A DNA stretch of 37,626 nt from a virus: positions 1-37,626 of the IMG/VR virus record IMGVR_UViG_3300048822_000082, one strand, 5' to 3'. Positions 1 to 37,626 of the stretch are shown piece after piece (the stretch's first letter is position 1; every line of letters starts with the position of its first letter). A model generated the notes under the pieces. That model saw only the letters and a list, made by a program, of their open reading frames with translations. It did not search any database and was not told where the DNA came from. The position numbers and the translations under genes were made by a program.

Positions 1-127
1 AAAACGACAAAGTCATAACTCCTTTTGGCATAGGCACCGTATTAGCCGCTGGATGCACCGGCAAAAGACAGGTAATCACCAATAAAGGGTTAACAGGCAC
101 GCCTAATCATCCTATTTACCATAATGA
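1..127. repeat. Terminal overlap, left copy
   Basis: These 127 bases are identical to 37500-37626. An exact short end overlap is the usual signature of a circular or circularly permuted genome assembled into a linear contig, so the two copies are very probably one locus. The overlap lies inside the intein of TerL, and the reading frame continues without a break across the join. Confidence 0.95.
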
Positions 128-998
128 TAAGTTTCTTCCTTTAACAACACTGACAGATGATATAATATTAGAGAAATTATCATTTGGGAGTTTGTTTAGA
201 TGGCGTCAAAAAATATTATTTTGTTCAATGGCGTTGAATATAGACTTGCACCATCGGCAAGATATTATAAATCTTGCCAGATTGGGCACAAAAATGAATT
301 CCTTCATAGAGCAGTTTGGGAGTTTTATAGCAAGGAAAAAATACCTAAAGGCTATCTCATTCACCATAAAGACCACGATAAACATAATAACAGTTATGAA
401 AACCTTGAATGTTTATCACCGAAAGAACATAGCGCAATACATCTTAAAGGCCCTGTTTCAGATGAAAGGCTTGAAATACTTAAAAGAATGCGTGAAAAAT
501 CTATGGAATGGCATAGAAGCGAAGAAGGCAGAGCAAAACAAGCCGAAGTCGCTAAAAGGGTTTTTAATCCAAACAAAAGAACAGATTGTAGCGTTTGTAA
601 AAATAAATTTATTGCCATTAGATCGCAATCCCATTTGTGCAGCGATGAATGTAAGCGCCAATGGGATAACAAATGGTCAAGAGAAAGACATCGAAGAATG
701 CCATTATTTAAAGCGAATTGCTTGCACTGTAGAAAAGAATTCGAAGCAAAAAGAAGTGTATGCGTCAAGCACAATAGAAAGACATGCTCAAGAGAGTGTG
801 CTAGAAGATATGGGAATGCAATACGTCTACAATCTAAAGATTGATCATGGCGTTTATTATGCGAATGACATTTTATCTTCAAATTGCGACACTTGCTATG
901 ATGCTGTAAAGATAGCGCTCATTGATAAAAATGCTAATCATGAAGCTTATTACAATCCAACATTTATACCAGAGTCATATTCAGGGATGTTCACATGA
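1..998 (+). CDS. terL: Terminase large subunit, C-terminal part (most of intein plus C-extein)
   Basis: Continuation of the TerL frame from the contig end. It is open from base 3 to the TGA at 996-998. Codons up to 884 belong to the intein. From Cys 885 the C-extein reads CDTCYDAVKIAL, 37 residues in all. Joined to THRWDDV it rebuilds the acidic DD..DT..DA motif that ends the TerL nuclease domain, so splicing is needed for nuclease function. The stop overlaps the portal start (ATGA). The middle part of this frame, roughly 190-810, has no family resemblance because a second protein is encoded there in another frame. Confidence 0.92.
   Translation, partial: NDKVITPFGIGTVLAAGCTGKRQVITNKGLTGTPNHPIYHNDKFLPLTTLTDDIILEKLSFGSLFRWRQKILFCSMALNIDLHHRQDIINLARLGTKMNSFIEQFGSFIARKKYLKAISFTIKTTINIITVMKTLNVYHRKNIAQYILKALFQMKGLKYLKECVKNLWNGIEAKKAEQNKPKSLKGFLIQTKEQIVAFVKINLLPLDRNPICAAMNVSANGITNGQEKDIEECHYLKRIACTVEKNSKQKEVYASSTIERHAQESVLEDMGMQYVYNLKIDHGVYYANDILSSNCDTCYDAVKIALIDKNANHEAYYNPTFIPESYSGMFT
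200..844 (+). CDS. HNH homing endonuclease encoded out of frame inside the intein
   Basis: A 214-residue protein in the -1 frame relative to TerL and the intein. It has its own Shine-Dalgarno GGGAG (186-190), 9 nt before the ATG. A TAG codon immediately precedes the ATG in this frame, so it is not entered by frameshifting upstream. The HNH core is LHRAVW (35-40), IHHKDHDKHNN (54-64) and His81 in an EHSAIH segment, as in HNH_3 homing enzymes. Two CxxC...CxxxC zinc ribbons follow (C130/C133/C147/C151 and C174/C177/C196/C200). Its last nine codons also encode intein block F in the other frame, so this is true dual coding. Inferred role: cutting intein-less terL to drive homing. Confidence 0.9.
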   Translation: MASKNIILFNGVEYRLAPSARYYKSCQIGHKNEFLHRAVWEFYSKEKIPKGYLIHHKDHDKHNNSYENLECLSPKEHSAIHLKGPVSDERLEILKRMREKSMEWHRSEEGRAKQAEVAKRVFNPNKRTDCSVCKNKFIAIRSQSHLCSDECKRQWDNKWSRERHRRMPLFKANCLHCRKEFEAKRSVCVKHNRKTCSRECARRYGNAIRLQSKD

Positions 999-3337
999 AA
1001 CCACGCAGCGACGAAGAGACAGTAAAGAAATGCCGAGATTTTATCGAAAAATGGAAAACTTACTTTAAGTTTAACATCGACGAATATCATAATATGCATA
1101 GGTTTGTCATGGCTGCACAGTGGAATGAAGAAGAAACAGATATTCTAAAAAGCTTCAAAAAAGTACCTTTGACTTTTAATAAGCTTTCAACATTAATTAA
1201 TACTCTGCTTGGCGAGCAACAACAGAACACTCCTCAGATTGAAATAGTACCTTTGTCCAATTGCACACAAGAGACTGCCAAGCTACGTCAAATCGTCGTT
1301 AAAGATATCATGCTCTCATCGGATGCTAAGACTGTTTATCAAGTTGCAGCCTCTCAAGCGTTCATAGGCGGTTTTGGTGCGTTTATCATCGATACTGATT
1401 ACACCCACGATAAAAGCTTTGATCAAGATATCGTTTATAGAAGCATCAAAGACGCTACCCGTTGCTATTGGGATATTGGCGCTGAGCATATCAATAAAAT
1501 AGATGGGATGCGTTGCGGCTACATTACTCGGATGACTAGAGACAAATTTAAACAGTTATATGGCGTCGATGTCGAAAATACAGTTTTGGCCGATGATAGC
1601 AAAAAAGCTGTCCCCACAAATAGTGAAATAGCGGCAGCGGTTGAAACTACAATACAAGGTGACTTAGGTTTTGGATGGGCTGATGACCATAGCGTTACAA
1701 TCATCGATGATTATGAGCGCACATTTAAAAAAGACACGCTTTATAAGTTGAGTAATGGCGAAACACTTAATCAAGAAGAAATGGACGAACTCATAGAATC
1801 ATCGCGTGAGCATATTGAGAAAATGAAAGAAGCTCGCATGATGATGGAACAAGCTCAGCAATCCATACAAGCAATGGGTGGTGGCGATTATGGGATGCAG
1901 CCTCAAACCATCCAGCCTCAGCAAATGCAAGGCAATATGGGCATGATGCAAGAAGGCCCGCAAGGCATGGAGCCTCAGCCTATGCCAGAAATGGATATGG
2001 AAGCCGAAGAAGAGGCTGAAGAAGACATAATCCCTCTTTATATGAATGGCGAACTTGTAAGAATCGAAGATGAGCGACCTTCAAAAAAATCAGTATTCAT
2101 ACACAAGAAAATGGCAGGTCATTACATCCTCGAAGAAGAAGAATTTCCCGCTGAGGATTGCCCAGTTATTTTCGTTGATCAAAACTCAACCTATGATAAA
2201 GAAGGCAAGCAGATTTGTCGTTCCTTTATTACTGATGCTGTTGATGCTCAACGCTTCCTGAACTATTTAGGCACACAAATAGCCTATCTCTTAAAGATTA
2301 GTCGTTATGACCAATTCATTGGGAGCAAAGAGAATGCGCGAAGCCCTCAAACACAGAAGATATGGACGAATCCGGCGGCTGTCCAAGGTTTATTAATGTA
2401 TGACGAGTCACCGAATGGTAATAAACCTGAACAGCTTAGACCGCCTGAATTGCCTATAAGCTTAGTTAATCAATATGAGCGCGCTGTAGAGGACATGTAT
2501 ACTTCTACGGGTATGTATCCATCAAGATTAGGCCAACAGGGCAACGAAGTGTCTGGCGCGGCTATTGATGCTAGAACTAGACAAGGTTCTTATCCCACTT
2601 ATGTTGCTTTCAATTCTATTAATCGCGCTATTACAGCTGGCGGTAGAATTGTTAACCAAATGATCCCAAGGGTTTATGATACACAGCGAGTCTTATCATT
2701 AATGATGCCCGACGAAGGTCAAAAGAATATAACGGTGAACGAGCAGCAAGATGAATATGGCGAAAATATTAAAAACGATATCCGCAAGGGATCCTTTGAG
2801 GTCCGCTTACAAGCTGGTCCAAGCTATGAAGGACAGAAGGCTGAAGCACTTCAATCACTTAATTTGGCGCTACAAGGCAACCCGCAAATATTTAACCTTG
2901 TTGCTGACCTCTACGCAGAGAACTTACCGCTTACTAATACTCTTGAAATCAGGAATAGGTTTAAGACTCTTGTGCCCCCTGAAATTATTGAAGCTGGTAA
3001 AAGTGGCAAGATGCCTCAACAGGCTCAAACGCCTAACCCACAAGATCAAGCGGCAATGGCCGAAGCTGAATACAAGAAACATAAGATTGAGCTTGAGAAA
3101 CAAAAAGTTCAAATGGAAATGCAAGAAATACAATCCAAGGCTGAGCTTGAACAAAAAGAAATGCAGTTGAAATACTTACAAGCTGCATCCTCGCTTGAAG
3201 AGGCTAAGCTTAGGTATATGGCAGAAACGGATAGGACACATAGTGACAATGCTATAAGTCATGCAGATAATATAACAAAAATAATGATAGCAAAACAACG
3301 GGAGAATAAGAATGGAAGTCAGTCCGAACGTAGATGA
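995..3337 (+). CDS. Portal protein, P22 gp1-like
   Basis: 780 residues, close to the P22 portal length. The portal is the dodecameric ring at the head vertex through which TerL pumps DNA and to which the neck attaches. The N-terminal half has typical P22-portal segments (around residues 30-200: FKKVPLTFNKLSTLINTLLG and later IGGFGAFIIDTDY). Residues about 265-345 are a Met/Gln/Glu-rich low-complexity stretch. The C-terminal 100 residues are a Lys/Glu/Gln-rich helix of the kind that forms the portal barrel. The ATG overlaps the TerL stop, and the end overlaps the scaffold gene by 26 nt. Confidence 0.9.
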   Translation: MKPRSDEETVKKCRDFIEKWKTYFKFNIDEYHNMHRFVMAAQWNEEETDILKSFKKVPLTFNKLSTLINTLLGEQQQNTPQIEIVPLSNCTQETAKLRQIVVKDIMLSSDAKTVYQVAASQAFIGGFGAFIIDTDYTHDKSFDQDIVYRSIKDATRCYWDIGAEHINKIDGMRCGYITRMTRDKFKQLYGVDVENTVLADDSKKAVPTNSEIAAAVETTIQGDLGFGWADDHSVTIIDDYERTFKKDTLYKLSNGETLNQEEMDELIESSREHIEKMKEARMMMEQAQQSIQAMGGGDYGMQPQTIQPQQMQGNMGMMQEGPQGMEPQPMPEMDMEAEEEAEEDIIPLYMNGELVRIEDERPSKKSVFIHKKMAGHYILEEEEFPAEDCPVIFVDQNSTYDKEGKQICRSFITDAVDAQRFLNYLGTQIAYLLKISRYDQFIGSKENARSPQTQKIWTNPAAVQGLLMYDESPNGNKPEQLRPPELPISLVNQYERAVEDMYTSTGMYPSRLGQQGNEVSGAAIDARTRQGSYPTYVAFNSINRAITAGGRIVNQMIPRVYDTQRVLSLMMPDEGQKNITVNEQQDEYGENIKNDIRKGSFEVRLQAGPSYEGQKAEALQSLNLALQGNPQIFNLVADLYAENLPLTNTLEIRNRFKTLVPPEIIEAGKSGKMPQQAQTPNPQDQAAMAEAEYKKHKIELEKQKVQMEMQEIQSKAELEQKEMQLKYLQAASSLEEAKLRYMAETDRTHSDNAISHADNITKIMIAKQRENKNGSQSERR

Positions 3338-4280
3338 AATGTTACTTGAAGCAATGAGCGGTCAAAAGCTTGAACCACTGCCGGAAAAGCCCCAAGAAGT
3401 TTCACGTGAAACAAACAGCCACGATGCAGCTCAATTAGAGAAAGATATTGGGGCTAATTCGCCCCAATTAGAGGCAGTTAGCCCCAATAAAGAAACAGCG
3501 AAGACGGAAAAGCCAAAGGCTGAGACTAATGAATACGGTGACAAAGCCGAGTCCGTCGGAAAAGCCGACAAAGTCGAATCATCCGAAAATGAATATGGGT
3601 TAGAAACACAACCTGAAAAACTTTACACAAAAGCTGAGCTTGATGAGCATACGAATAGAGTTATGCGTGAGCGTGTAGCTCGATTTGAGCGCAATCAGCA
3701 ACAACAACAGCCTACGCAGCAACAACAACAAACAGCTGCGCAGCAAGGTTTTCAGTACGATGAAAACTCAAACCAGGACTGGCAGCAACAGCTAGAACAG
3801 TTTGTATTGCAAGTTGCTGATAAGCGCGAGCAGACTCAAGCAGCTAGACTGCAGCAAGCTGTAGAGCAAGAGTCTATGCAGAAATTTGAATCTAAGTTTA
3901 AACAAGGTATGAGTAAGTTTAATGATTACCACGAAGTGCTTGGCGGAAAAAGCGTTACTGATGCAATGTTAATGGCTGCAAGCGAAGTTAATGACCCTGC
4001 GGCATTATTCTACGCGGCGGCTAAGCGTATGCCTGATGAATTGGCCAAAATTGCAGAGATTAAAAGCCCTTTAGCACAAGCTGCCGCAATTGGCAGATTA
4101 GATGAAAAATTGAGGAAACAATCAGTGCAAACTAGCAAAGCTCCTAAGCCTATTAGCCCGACTAAGACAGATACAACTACGGTATTTCAGCCTAAAGAGA
4201 CAAGTGGAAACGAGCTGGATGATTTGTTGGTACAGGATAAGAATAGTCGATTAGCTCAATTGAATGCCCGTAGACGCTAA
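3312..4280 (+). CDS. Scaffolding protein, P22 gp8-like
   Basis: 322 residues, acidic at the start, with a poly-Gln stretch near residues 130-150 and long predicted helices. It has no enzymatic motif. Position between portal and coat, length and composition match podovirus scaffolds that template procapsid assembly and then leave. The C-terminus is basic (RLAQLNARRR), as in P22 scaffold, where a basic helix-turn-helix contacts the coat protein. The start is supported by GGGAG about 8 nt upstream. Its stop overlaps by 4 nt the stop of the leftward HTH gene. Confidence 0.85.
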   Translation: MEVSPNVDEMLLEAMSGQKLEPLPEKPQEVSRETNSHDAAQLEKDIGANSPQLEAVSPNKETAKTEKPKAETNEYGDKAESVGKADKVESSENEYGLETQPEKLYTKAELDEHTNRVMRERVARFERNQQQQQPTQQQQQTAAQQGFQYDENSNQDWQQQLEQFVLQVADKREQTQAARLQQAVEQESMQKFESKFKQGMSKFNDYHEVLGGKSVTDAMLMAASEVNDPAALFYAAAKRMPDELAKIAEIKSPLAQAAAIGRLDEKLRKQSVQTSKAPKPISPTKTDTTTVFQPKETSGNELDDLLVQDKNSRLAQLNARRR

Positions 4281-35577: not shown

Positions 35578-36057
35578 ATGCCTTCTGGAAGACCAAGTAT
35601 TTACACTGAAGAATTAGCCGAATTAATTTGCGAACGCGTAGCAACATCAACATTCGGTTTAAAAAAATTATGTTCTATGTATGACGATATGCCAAATCAC
35701 GATACTGTGTTTGCTTGGCGTTATAAAAATAGAGTTTTTTCCGACCTGTACACAAAAGCAAAGATAGCGCAAGCTGAATTATTAGCGGAAGAAACGCTTG
35801 ATATTTCGGATGATGGCACTAATGATTGGATGGAAACACTACCCGATAAAGATAAACCAGAAGGTTGGAAATTAAACGGCGAGCATGTTAATCGTTCTCG
35901 ATTAAGAATAGAAACACGAAAGTTTCTTGCTGCTAAACTTATGCCTAAGATATACGGCAATCAAGCCGAAAAGTCTGACGATGATAATTCAGCTAAAGAA
36001 ACACAGCGCCTCATCAATGAACGAACATTAGAGCTTTTGAATGCTCAAACTAAATAA
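35578..36057 (+). CDS. terS: Terminase small subunit
   Basis: 159 residues, matching P22 gp3 (162). N-terminal helix-turn-helix-like DNA-recognition region (GRPSIYTEELAELICERVAT, then MPNHDTVFAWRYKNRVFSDL), a helical oligomerisation core (AQAELLAEETLDISDDGTND) and RSRLRIETRKFLAAKLMPKI, typical of this terminase_5-like family. It recognises the packaging site and delivers DNA to TerL. AAGGA lies 7 nt before the ATG. The end overlaps TerL by 17 nt. Confidence 0.88.
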   Translation: MPSGRPSIYTEELAELICERVATSTFGLKKLCSMYDDMPNHDTVFAWRYKNRVFSDLYTKAKIAQAELLAEETLDISDDGTNDWMETLPDKDKPEGWKLNGEHVNRSRLRIETRKFLAAKLMPKIYGNQAEKSDDDNSAKETQRLINERTLELLNAQTK

Positions 36058-37626
36058 TGAGAATGAAGCACAAGCTCAGCTAAAATTTCATTTATTGACA
36101 GATTTTCTTTTTTTTATGAAAACATTTTTCCCGCTGGCTACAGGCAGGGAATTTTTAATAAGTAAGCCTAGAGACCGTGAGTCACACTTTATTACAATTG
36201 CCAACGAACTTACGCTTGCAGCTAACCTGGAAGTCCTTTCTATTTTGTGTAATGTGCCTCCTGGTTCCGGCAAATCAACTATTTGCAGCATGTGGGTTTC
36301 CTGGACGATGGCACGCTGGCAGAACAGTCAATATCTTTATGTTTCATATGGAAAGACCTTGGCTACAAAACACACAGACTTCACTAAAAGAATAATTCAA
36401 CATCCTTATTACAAAGCTATGTTTGGAGTGGAAATAAGACATGATAGTAAAGCTAAAGATCACTTCCAAACAATTCAAGGTGGTTCAGTTAAAGCGTTTG
36501 GTTCAGCGGGCGCAATCACTGGTCAAGATGCTGGATTGCCAAATTGTAATCATTTCACAGGGGCGATAATACTAGATGACCTACATAAACCCGACGAAGT
36601 ACATTCCGACACAATTAGACAAACAGTCATTGATAACTACCGCGAAACTATATTACAACGCCCTAGAGGCCCGAATGTCCCCATCATATTTATCGGACAA
36701 CGATTACATGAGGATGACTTACCCGCATATTTCCTTAGTGGTAAAGATGAACGAACCTGGAAGCCAATAATACTCAAAGGCATTGATGATAATGGGAACG
36801 CACTGTATCCAGAGGTCAATAGCTTGGCATCATTATTGGACAAGCAAGAGAAAAACCCTTATGTATTCGCTTCACAATATCAACAGAACCCCATTCCTGC
36901 AGGGGGAGCTCTCTTTAAAGATAACTATTTCTTAAAACTTCCCGATGAACCTGAGCTTATATGCACTTTCATCACGGCTGACACTGCTGAAACATCTAAA
37001 AGCTACAACGATGCAACAGCTTTTAGCTTTTGGGGCGTTTACTACGTTGAGGAAGGTAATCACAAAACAAATAGATTAGCTTTGCACTGGATAGATTGTG
37101 TAGAGATTAGAGTAGAACCCAAAGATCTTAAAGATGAATTCATGAGCTTCTATGCTGAATGTATGACACATAAGAATAAACCTCTATTTGCAGCAATTGA
37201 AAAGAAATCAACAGGCGCAACCCTGGTAAGCGTATTATCTGACATGCGCGGCTTAGAAATCAGGGAAGTTAAACGCACAAAAGTAGATGGCTCTAAAGCT
37301 ACCAGATTCTTAGAGATGCAACCTATTTTGGCTAGTAAGCTTGTAACATTTACTGAATACGCAAAACATACAAAATTATGCATCGATCATATGCTTAAGA
37401 TCACGGCGAATGATACCCATCGTTGGGACGATGTTTGTTTCATAACTAATACTAGAATAGCAACTCCTAACGGTTATCGCAATATCCAAGACATAAAAGA
37501 AAACGACAAAGTCATAACTCCTTTTGGCATAGGCACCGTATTAGCCGCTGGATGCACCGGCAAAAGACAGGTAATCACCAATAAAGGGTTAACAGGCACG
37601 CCTAATCATCCTATTTACCATAATGA
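36041..37626 (+). CDS. terL: Terminase large subunit, N-terminal part, with intein start
   Basis: DNA-packaging motor ATPase and headful nuclease. The chosen ATG overlaps the small-subunit stop by 17 nt, and the frame stays open to the contig end and continues at base 1. Visible motifs: Walker A PPGSGKST (residues 73-80), Walker B AIILDD (175-180), and an RNase-H-type nuclease strand ITADTAET with the first catalytic Asp near residue 314. The N-extein is 465 residues and ends in THRWDDV. The intein begins at the Cys codon 37436. Removing the intein gives a 502-residue protein, normal for this family. An alternative start is ATG 36116, residue 26. The gene is split only by linearisation of the contig. 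Confidence 0.95.
   Translation, partial: MLKLNNENEAQAQLKFHLLTDFLFFMKTFFPLATGREFLISKPRDRESHFITIANELTLAANLEVLSILCNVPPGSGKSTICSMWVSWTMARWQNSQYLYVSYGKTLATKHTDFTKRIIQHPYYKAMFGVEIRHDSKAKDHFQTIQGGSVKAFGSAGAITGQDAGLPNCNHFTGAIILDDLHKPDEVHSDTIRQTVIDNYRETILQRPRGPNVPIIFIGQRLHEDDLPAYFLSGKDERTWKPIILKGIDDNGNALYPEVNSLASLLDKQEKNPYVFASQYQQNPIPAGGALFKDNYFLKLPDEPELICTFITADTAETSKSYNDATAFSFWGVYYVEEGNHKTNRLALHWIDCVEIRVEPKDLKDEFMSFYAECMTHKNKPLFAAIEKKSTGATLVSVLSDMRGLEIREVKRTKVDGSKATRFLEMQPILASKLVTFTEYAKHTKLCIDHMLKITANDTHRWDDVCFITNTRIATPNGYRNIQDIKENDKVITPFGIGTVLAAGCTGKRQVITNKGLTGTPNHPIYHN
37436..37626 (+). mobile_element. Intein in TerL, N-terminal splicing segment
   Basis: The intein starts at Cys (37436-37438). Block A reads CFITNTRIATPNG followed by an IQDIKENDKV stretch, the standard Hint-domain start (Cys, then TxxG and DI..GD-type turns). 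This is a protein-splicing element: it excises itself from the TerL precursor and joins the exteins. The insertion point, just after RWDDV, lies in the most conserved nuclease motif, as is typical for inteins. The segment continues at base 1. Confidence 0.93.
37500..37626. repeat. Terminal overlap, right copy
   Basis: Exact copy of 1-127. Joining the two gives a circle of 37,499 bp and restores an uninterrupted 818-codon TerL frame. Circular permutation would fit the headful packaging expected for a P22-like terminase, but the exact overlap alone shows only circularity of the assembly. Confidence 0.95.

What the first reader, a model, noticed from the sequence alone, without database searches (positions are those of the whole stretch)
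200..844. HNH homing endonuclease nested out of frame inside an intein
Seen: a 214-codon HNH gene with its own GGGAG site lies entirely within the intein of TerL but in the -1 frame. The intein frame stays open across the same DNA, and the last nine HNH codons also encode intein block F. A TAG directly before the ATG in the HNH frame rules out a simple upstream frameshift fusion. Known: intein endonucleases are normally in-frame domains of the precursor. Inference: here the nuclease is made separately while the splicing frame is kept open over a stretch with no recognisable fold. With random uniform codons, about 215 codons without a stop has a chance of roughly 3 in 100,000, so openness is probably selected. 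This would be a distinct architecture for a mobile intein.
Basis: partly seen in the sequence, partly recalled or inferred. Interest (0 to 1): 0.92.

Follow-up and report, generated by a model that had tools for sequence, protein, structure and literature searches.

The report
Endonuclease gene hidden inside intein
A phage packaging gene carries a self-splicing protein insert (an intein), and a complete DNA-cutting homing enzyme is written in another reading frame over the same DNA; this looks odd but recurs in about 145 phage sequences, whose insert frame is free of stop codons while unnested relatives of the enzyme carry the usual number.

Summary
The contig is circular (ends share 127 bp). 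TerL with its intein is one open 818-codon frame across the join; removing the 316-residue intein restores the joint of intein-free relatives exactly. An HNH_3/zinc-ribbon endonuclease (200-844) lies wholly inside it, one frame off, with its own Shine-Dalgarno, start and stop.

It is neither an indel nor unique. Sixty-seven loci (window, 4 phage records, 62 viral contigs) have the arrangement; a scan for intein ends, not HNH, found it in 77 of 79 fetched loci, and prokaryote genomes gave 13 more. No HNH of this family was in frame with an intein. Sixty-three nested HNHs have 0 stops in the intein frame against 151 expected from synonymous shuffles; 18 free-standing relatives have 117 against 118. 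Hence openness is kept by selection. In a relative, AlphaFold folds the Hint halves (pLDDT ~97) but not the overlap (<50); the window HNH models at 92.

Most likely: the intein splices in cis, with the overlap as a disordered linker; the nuclease is translated separately and drives homing. Splicing, separate translation and cutting are inferred. Precedent exists: a 2015 brucellaphage paper mentions an out-of-frame intein HNH in TerL, and a 2025 paper describes out-of-frame HNHs in methylases.

The parts
36041..37435 (+). TerL N-extein (ATPase and most of the nuclease domain), ends ...THRWDDV
   Evidence: PHROG 38 terminase large subunit E 3e-74; joint with C-extein matches intein-free relatives L004-L007
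37436..37626 (+). Intein N-terminal Hint part, begins CFITNTRIATPNG; continues at window 1 because 37500-37626 repeats 1-127
   Evidence: Hint_2 E 3e-4, NCBIfam intein_Nterm E 0.03; own Hint-N profile 102 bits (the window was among the sequences used to build it); Cys1
1..127 (.). Terminal overlap identical to 37500-37626: the contig is a closed circle of 37,499 bp
1..199 (+). Intein Hint N part, continued (block B with TxxH motif GTPNH)
186..190 (+). GGGAG, Shine-Dalgarno-like site of the nested gene; the HNH frame is closed by TAG at 197-199
   Evidence: duplex energy -6.8 kcal/mol
200..844 (+). Nested HNH endonuclease gene, 214 aa (HNH_3 core about 305-442, zinc ribbons downstream), frame -1 relative to the intein
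   Evidence: Pfam HNH_3 E 1e-12; PHROG 15471 HNH E 3e-20; invariant H36 H55 H56 D58 N63 N64 H77 C130 C133 C147 C151; AF2 pLDDT 92
201..815 (+). Same DNA read in the intein frame: open linker without a known domain, no stop
   Evidence: equivalent stretch of L024 has pLDDT < 50
816..884 (+). Intein C-terminal blocks F and G (YVYNLKIDHGVYYANDILSSN), overlapping the HNH 3' end
   Evidence: own Hint-C profile 47 bits; geometry shared with relatives
885..998 (+). TerL C-extein, begins CDTCYDAVKIAL (last conserved Asp of the nuclease)
   Evidence: 92-97% identical to intein-free TerL of L004-L007

Best explanation
A mobile TerL intein whose homing endonuclease is a separate gene overprinted on it. 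(1) The ribosome reads TerL-intein-TerL as one chain; the Hint halves (about the first 88 and last 40 residues) fold together and splice in cis, and the ~185 residues between them are a disordered linker at the usual endonuclease insertion position. (2) The HNH is started independently at its own RBS and ATG in the -1 frame. (3) It cuts intein-less terL near the catalytic-Asp codon of the nuclease domain, and repair copies intein plus HNH into the gap. The HNH probably descends from free-standing HNH genes that sit beside terL. A captured gene that keeps its own start and stop cannot lie in frame with the intein, since its stop would truncate TerL; of the other two frames, HNH+1 holds about three times fewer stops and is easiest to open, which explains why nearly all cases use it. 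Selection on the linker is essentially only that no stop arises. Shown: anatomy, exact empty site, recurrence, stop depletion, purifying selection on the HNH. Inferred: splicing, separate translation, cutting, homing, capture.
For: Exact restoration of the TerL joint. 63 nested loci with intein frame = HNH+1: 0 stops vs 151 expected from synonymous shuffles and 213 from TerL codon usage (56 loci); the 4 loci that use HNH+2 have 0 stops there (about 46 expected) but 39 vs 31 expected in +1; 18 free-standing relatives 117 vs 118; 10 split-intein loci 89 vs 81. HNH-independent sampling by the intein C-end: 77 of 79 newly fetched loci carry the HNH, all in frame +1, none in frame 0. All 67 nested HNHs have an in-frame start; SD of -5 kcal/mol or better in 54% vs 17% in a matched control (maximum 33% of 1000 draws). 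Substitutions concentrate at HNH third positions in nested and free pairs alike, and intein-frame identity barely exceeds that of the non-coding frame. HNH pLDDT 92; intein-frame Hint ~97, overlap < 50; Hint matches intein crystal structures. Splice residues: Cys1 in 63/65, Asn in 65/65, +1 Cys/Ser in 65/65, TxxH in 63/65 (Asn and the +1 residue were also used to place the end, so those two counts are not independent). Free-standing relatives of the HNH lie beside terL or terS.
Against: No expression, splicing or cleavage data. The window intein ends SSN, without the penultimate His, and its block-F His is displaced by one (Ser is penultimate in 15 of 65 relatives), so its splicing rate is uncertain. 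The window HNH sits on a long branch (2.27). 46% of nested genes lack a clear SD; many of these look like Bacteroidota phages, which do not rely on SD (my inference). Foldseek gives no significant match for the HNH (best I-HmuI, E 0.56). Loci were not thinned of near-copies.
Confidence: 0.8

Rival explanations
1. The HNH is made by a programmed -1 ribosomal frameshift from the intein frame, giving an N-terminal TerL/Hint-HNH fusion rather than a separate protein.
For: HNH is always reached by a -1 (or, in four loci, +1) shift from the intein frame.
Against: Slippery heptamers in the possible shift stretch are at background (10 vs 7.7 expected); start codons are always present and SD sites enriched; in the window a TAG just before the ATG limits any shift to within the HNH ORF.
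Confidence: 0.06
2. The HNH is a terminase helper (like the HK97 gp74 class needed for packaging) rather than a homing enzyme; the overlap is a fixed functional partnership.
For: Free-standing relatives also sit next to terL/terS; the brucellaphage authors raised this link.
Against: It lies inside an element that is cleanly absent in close relatives; the profile matches homing enzyme I-HmuI; nested, free and split copies are interspersed on the tree; mini-intein L214 has no HNH and L170 only a remnant, so it is dispensable.
Confidence: 0.1
3. The nested HNH is a decaying relic whose openness in the intein frame is accidental.
For: A single locus could stay open by luck; some GC-rich loci expect under 1 stop.
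Against: 0 vs 151 stops over 63 loci; catalytic and zinc residues invariant; third-position bias shows purifying selection on the HNH.
Confidence: 0.01
4. Assembly or sequencing indels separate an originally in-frame HNH domain from the intein.
For: None beyond the possibility for any single contig.
Against: Same frame relation in ~145 contigs from many datasets, complete ORFs in both frames, own start and stop in the HNH frame.
Confidence: 0.005

Closest known systems
Out-of-frame HNH in the brucellaphage large terminase (PMC4422536, Virol J 2015)
   Different: One remark; in the passages read, no splice motifs, stop statistics, relatives or mechanism are given. I could not fetch these records to check.
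ShiLan domain: hidden out-of-frame HNH in a phage methylase (PMC11855218, Genes 2025)
   Same: Full HNH with own start and stop inserted in another frame while the host frame stays open; disordered when read in the host frame.
   Different: No intein or intron: the insert stays in the protein. Here an intein removes it. The same group cites a preprint (bioRxiv 10.1101/2025.01.02.630785, 'Non-Canonical Architecture') that I could not read and that may describe nested inteins.
Canonical mobile inteins with in-frame endonuclease domain, including mycobacteriophage TerL inteins (PMC5050341)
   Same: Hint splicing domain, homing-type nuclease at the same loop, TerL host.
   Different: There the nuclease is part of the spliced polypeptide and the TerL sites lie in the ATPase domain; here it is a separate frame and the site is the last nuclease motif.
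Fractured genes: split inteins with a free-standing endonuclease between the halves (Dassa et al. 2009, known to me from citation and memory only)
   Same: Nuclease gene located between Hint N and Hint C; the Hint here most resembles gp41-1, which from memory is one of those split inteins.
   Different: There the intein is split into two ORFs; here it is continuous. Relatives of this very HNH show the split form in 20 loci.
I-HmuI (HNH homing endonuclease of a group I intron)
   Same: HNH core matches in sequence profile (PDB 1u3e, E 2e-4).
   Different: Different DNA-binding parts (zinc ribbons here) and an intron host.

Membership tests
Intein (Hint, class 1) | Cys1, block B TxxH, terminal Asn, +1 Cys/Ser/Thr | tested here: met
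   Window C1, TPNH, N316, C+1; 63-65 of 65 relatives
Intein (Hint, class 1) | Block F and penultimate His | tested here: not met
   Window ...HGVYYANDILSSN: His displaced, Ser penultimate; Ser is common in the family (15/65). A usual, not a strictly defining feature: inteins without it can splice (own knowledge)
Intein (Hint, class 1) | Exact removal restores the host protein of intein-free relatives | tested here: met
   RWDDV^CDTCYDAV vs RWDDI CDTCYDAV in L004-L007, no indel
Intein (Hint, class 1) | Hint fold | tested here: met
   Tested on relative L024: 1-90 and 275-314 at pLDDT ~97, matches intein structures; the window copy spans the contig join and could not be folded whole
Intein (Hint, class 1) | Protein splicing | not testable with these tools
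   needs expression
HEN-containing intein, canonical | Endonuclease in frame within the intein polypeptide | tested here: not met
   HNH in the -1 frame; no in-frame case of this HNH family among the nested loci
HNH homing endonuclease (HNH_3) | HNH catalytic core and zinc ribbons | tested here: met
   Pfam HNH_3 E 1e-12; invariant residues
HNH homing endonuclease (HNH_3) | Cuts the empty site and drives homing | not testable with these tools
   needs cleavage assay; patchy presence only suggestive
Fractured gene / split intein with free-standing endonuclease | Hint N and Hint C in separate ORFs | tested here: not met
   Single 818-codon ORF in the window; met in 20 relatives
ShiLan-type out-of-frame HNH insertion | Full HNH ORF in another frame with host frame open | tested here: met
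ShiLan-type out-of-frame HNH insertion | No splicing domain in the insert | tested here: not met
   Hint N and C flank the HNH
Programmed frameshift product | Slippery site in the overlap | tested here: not met
   10 vs 7.7 expected over 63 loci

The most novel reading that the evidence does not exclude
A large clade of TerL nuclease-site inteins carries its endonuclease as an overprinted independent gene as a rule, formed repeatedly by capture of terL-adjacent free-standing HNH genes, with frame choice dictated by stop density and the gene's own stop codon; split (trans-splicing) inteins with a central HNH are the alternative outcome of the same capture. This would be the intein counterpart of the proposed origin of mobile group I introns.
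Probability: 0.5. Interest if true: 0.8.

Novelty: new member of a known kind. Interest (0 to 1): 0.64.

Why it matters
It indicates that an intein does not need its endonuclease as a domain: splicing and mobility can be two proteins from one stretch of DNA. It gives a large natural set of fully nested overlapping genes in which one frame is constrained in sequence and the other almost only to be free of stops, with unnested relatives as a built-in control. It makes the question of how endonucleases enter inteins testable, because free-standing, nested and split states of one HNH family coexist. Annotation consequence: such nucleases are hidden inside 'terminase large subunit' entries, and family databases appear to hold translations of the wrong frame (PHROG 30251 and 35162 match the linker).

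Tried and rejected
tblastn of the intein frame against phages: no match. Single-protein scans reached few relatives; alignment queries were needed. First genome-contig query too diverse. Brucellaphage records not held under the accessions tried; one guess was a Burkholderia phage. Gorbalenya 1998 not held; the 2025 preprint is not in the library. Foldseek of the HNH gave nothing significant. L003 is only a distant HNH and was left out. Frameshift fusion tested and not supported. An indel artefact was rejected on recurrence. L059, first suspected to be an HNH in TerL without intein, proved to be a free HNH after an intact terL, followed by a duplicated terL 3' end.

Full report
Anatomy. The window's first and last 127 bases are identical, so the contig is a closed circle of 37,499 bp and the terL gene runs across the join: 36041-37499 plus 1-998, 818 codons without a stop. 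The part before 37436 is TerL (PHROG 38, E 3e-74). The intein starts at CFITNTRIAT (37436) and ends ILSSN (884); cutting it out gives RWDDV-CDTCYDAVKIALIDKN, the uninterrupted sequence of four intein-free relatives (RWDDI CDTCYDAVKIALIDKN, L004-L007) without a single-residue gap. Inside it, 200-844 is a complete HNH gene, one frame back, with GGGAG nine bases before its ATG and a TAG just before the ATG in its own frame. Its product has the HNH_3 core (E 1e-12) and zinc ribbons.

Is it chance or an error? Neither. tblastn of the HNH led to three named phages whose annotated 'terminase large subunit' hides the same thing: Acinetobacter phage Highwayman, Tetrasphaera phage TJE1 and Rhodobacteraceae phage LS06-2018-MD07, plus a faecal scaffold, MT838676. 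An alignment scan of IMG/VR returned 80 loci. With the phage records and the window, 96 loci were classified by profiles for Hint N, Hint C and HNH: 63 nested with intein frame = HNH+1, 4 nested with HNH+2, 10 with Hint N and Hint C in different ORFs around the HNH ('split'), 18 free-standing, 1 partial. None has the HNH in frame with an intein. A second scan used only the intein C-end and TerL junction, not the HNH: of 79 newly fetched loci, 73 have Hint N and C in one ORF with the HNH in frame +1 and 4 more are cut by the contig edge but show the same; one (L183) is cut too short to tell, and one (L214, a 135-residue mini-intein) lacks the HNH; L170, counted among the 73, keeps only a remnant. 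This second sample leans towards the lineage of its query. Prokaryote genomes gave 13 nested, 10 split and 7 free loci and 2 partial. Together with the window and four phage records this is about 145 distinct contigs (62 + 66 + 13 + 5), not thinned of near-copies.

Selection on openness. For each HNH I shuffled synonymous codons among its own residues and counted stops in the other frames. The 63 nested genes have 0 stops in the intein frame; 151 were expected (213 with TerL codon usage in 56 of them). The 4 genes in the other phase have 0 stops in that phase (about 46 expected) but the ordinary number in +1 (39 vs 31). The 18 free-standing relatives have 117 vs 118, the split loci 89 vs 81. 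'Nested' is defined by a shared ORF, but among the 77 loci with both Hint halves the counts are bimodal: 67 with none and 10 with 5-14, nothing between.

Which frame carries the protein? In the related pairs compared, nested or free, differences concentrate at HNH third positions, and identity in the intein frame is only slightly above that in the unused third frame. So the HNH is under ordinary purifying selection and the overlapping intein stretch is hardly constrained beyond having no stop. Structure prediction agrees: the window HNH reaches pLDDT 92; a relative's intein (L024) has a Hint fold at ~97 in residues 1-90 and 275-314 and below 50 in almost all of 91-272, and matches intein structures. 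Splice residues are kept in nearly all.

Expression. All 67 nested HNHs have a start codon in frame where the conserved protein begins; 54% have an SD site of -5 kcal/mol or better, against 17% in matched draws from internal starts (never above 33% in 1000 draws). Slippery heptamers are at background. This favours independent initiation; it does not prove it.

Origin. Free-standing relatives stand beside terL or terS. On an HNH tree nested, free and split copies are interspersed; well-supported branches force at least 6 changes of the nested state, and the +2 state is separate (the bootstrap had not settled, so take the supports as rough). The exteins are large terminases by PHROG profiles and insertions cluster within a few residues of the last conserved Asp of the nuclease, at more than one exact position (DDV^CD, DNH^CIDA, DNHYIDA^CRY). 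My inference: a neighbouring HNH gene was captured by the intein more than once, keeping its own start and stop. Such a gene cannot sit in frame, since its stop would truncate TerL. Free-standing genes carry 117 stops in +1 and about 370 in +2 (summed), so +1 is the easier frame to clear. Where it is not cleared, the intein can survive only as two pieces, which is what the split loci look like.

Prior knowledge. The Virol J 2015 brucellaphage paper mentions an out-of-frame intein HNH in TerL. The Genes 2025 ShiLan paper describes out-of-frame HNHs in methylases without an intein and points to an unread preprint on non-canonical phage inteins. Mycobacteriophage TerL inteins lie in the ATPase domain. 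The conserved endonuclease loop is the canonical site (PMC6801210). I therefore file the window as a member of a kind already noticed, but hardly studied. To my knowledge the statistical evidence for dual-frame openness, the absence of in-frame forms, the frame rule and the link to split forms are new; priority must be checked against the preprint.

Noticed in passing
L018 (Lactobacillus phage CL2) 2490-2774; L010, L029, L032, L033, L070, L097; genome loci L113, L118, L123-L126, L128-L131: TerL appears split: Hint N ends the annotated terL, the HNH follows, and a small ORF (unannotated in CL2) holds Hint C plus the catalytic-Asp end of TerL. Likely trans-splicing split inteins with a central HNH.
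   Followed up: partly
L059 about 1250-3715: Intact terL, then a free HNH of this family, then a second copy of the terL 3' end (DAMRYACMW...), as if the HNH inserted while bringing a replacement tail.
   Followed up: partly
L084, L089, L090, L099: Four nested loci use the other phase (intein = HNH+2), open despite the higher stop density of that frame.
   Followed up: yes
L109, L111: Nested copies in genomes labelled archaeal (a Methanomethylophilaceae MAG contig and a Thermoplasmatales chromosome).
   Followed up: no
window 3-998 in the intein frame: PHROG 30251 (annotated terminase, 799 aa) and 35162 (unknown function) match the overlap read in the intein frame; such families appear to hold translations of hidden HNH DNA.
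   Followed up: partly
L214 and L170: A mini-intein without HNH and one with only an HNH remnant at the same kind of TerL site: probable loss stages.
   Followed up: no
window 394-882, minus strand: A third open frame (162 aa) opposite the HNH, probably a by-product of codon usage.
   Followed up: no
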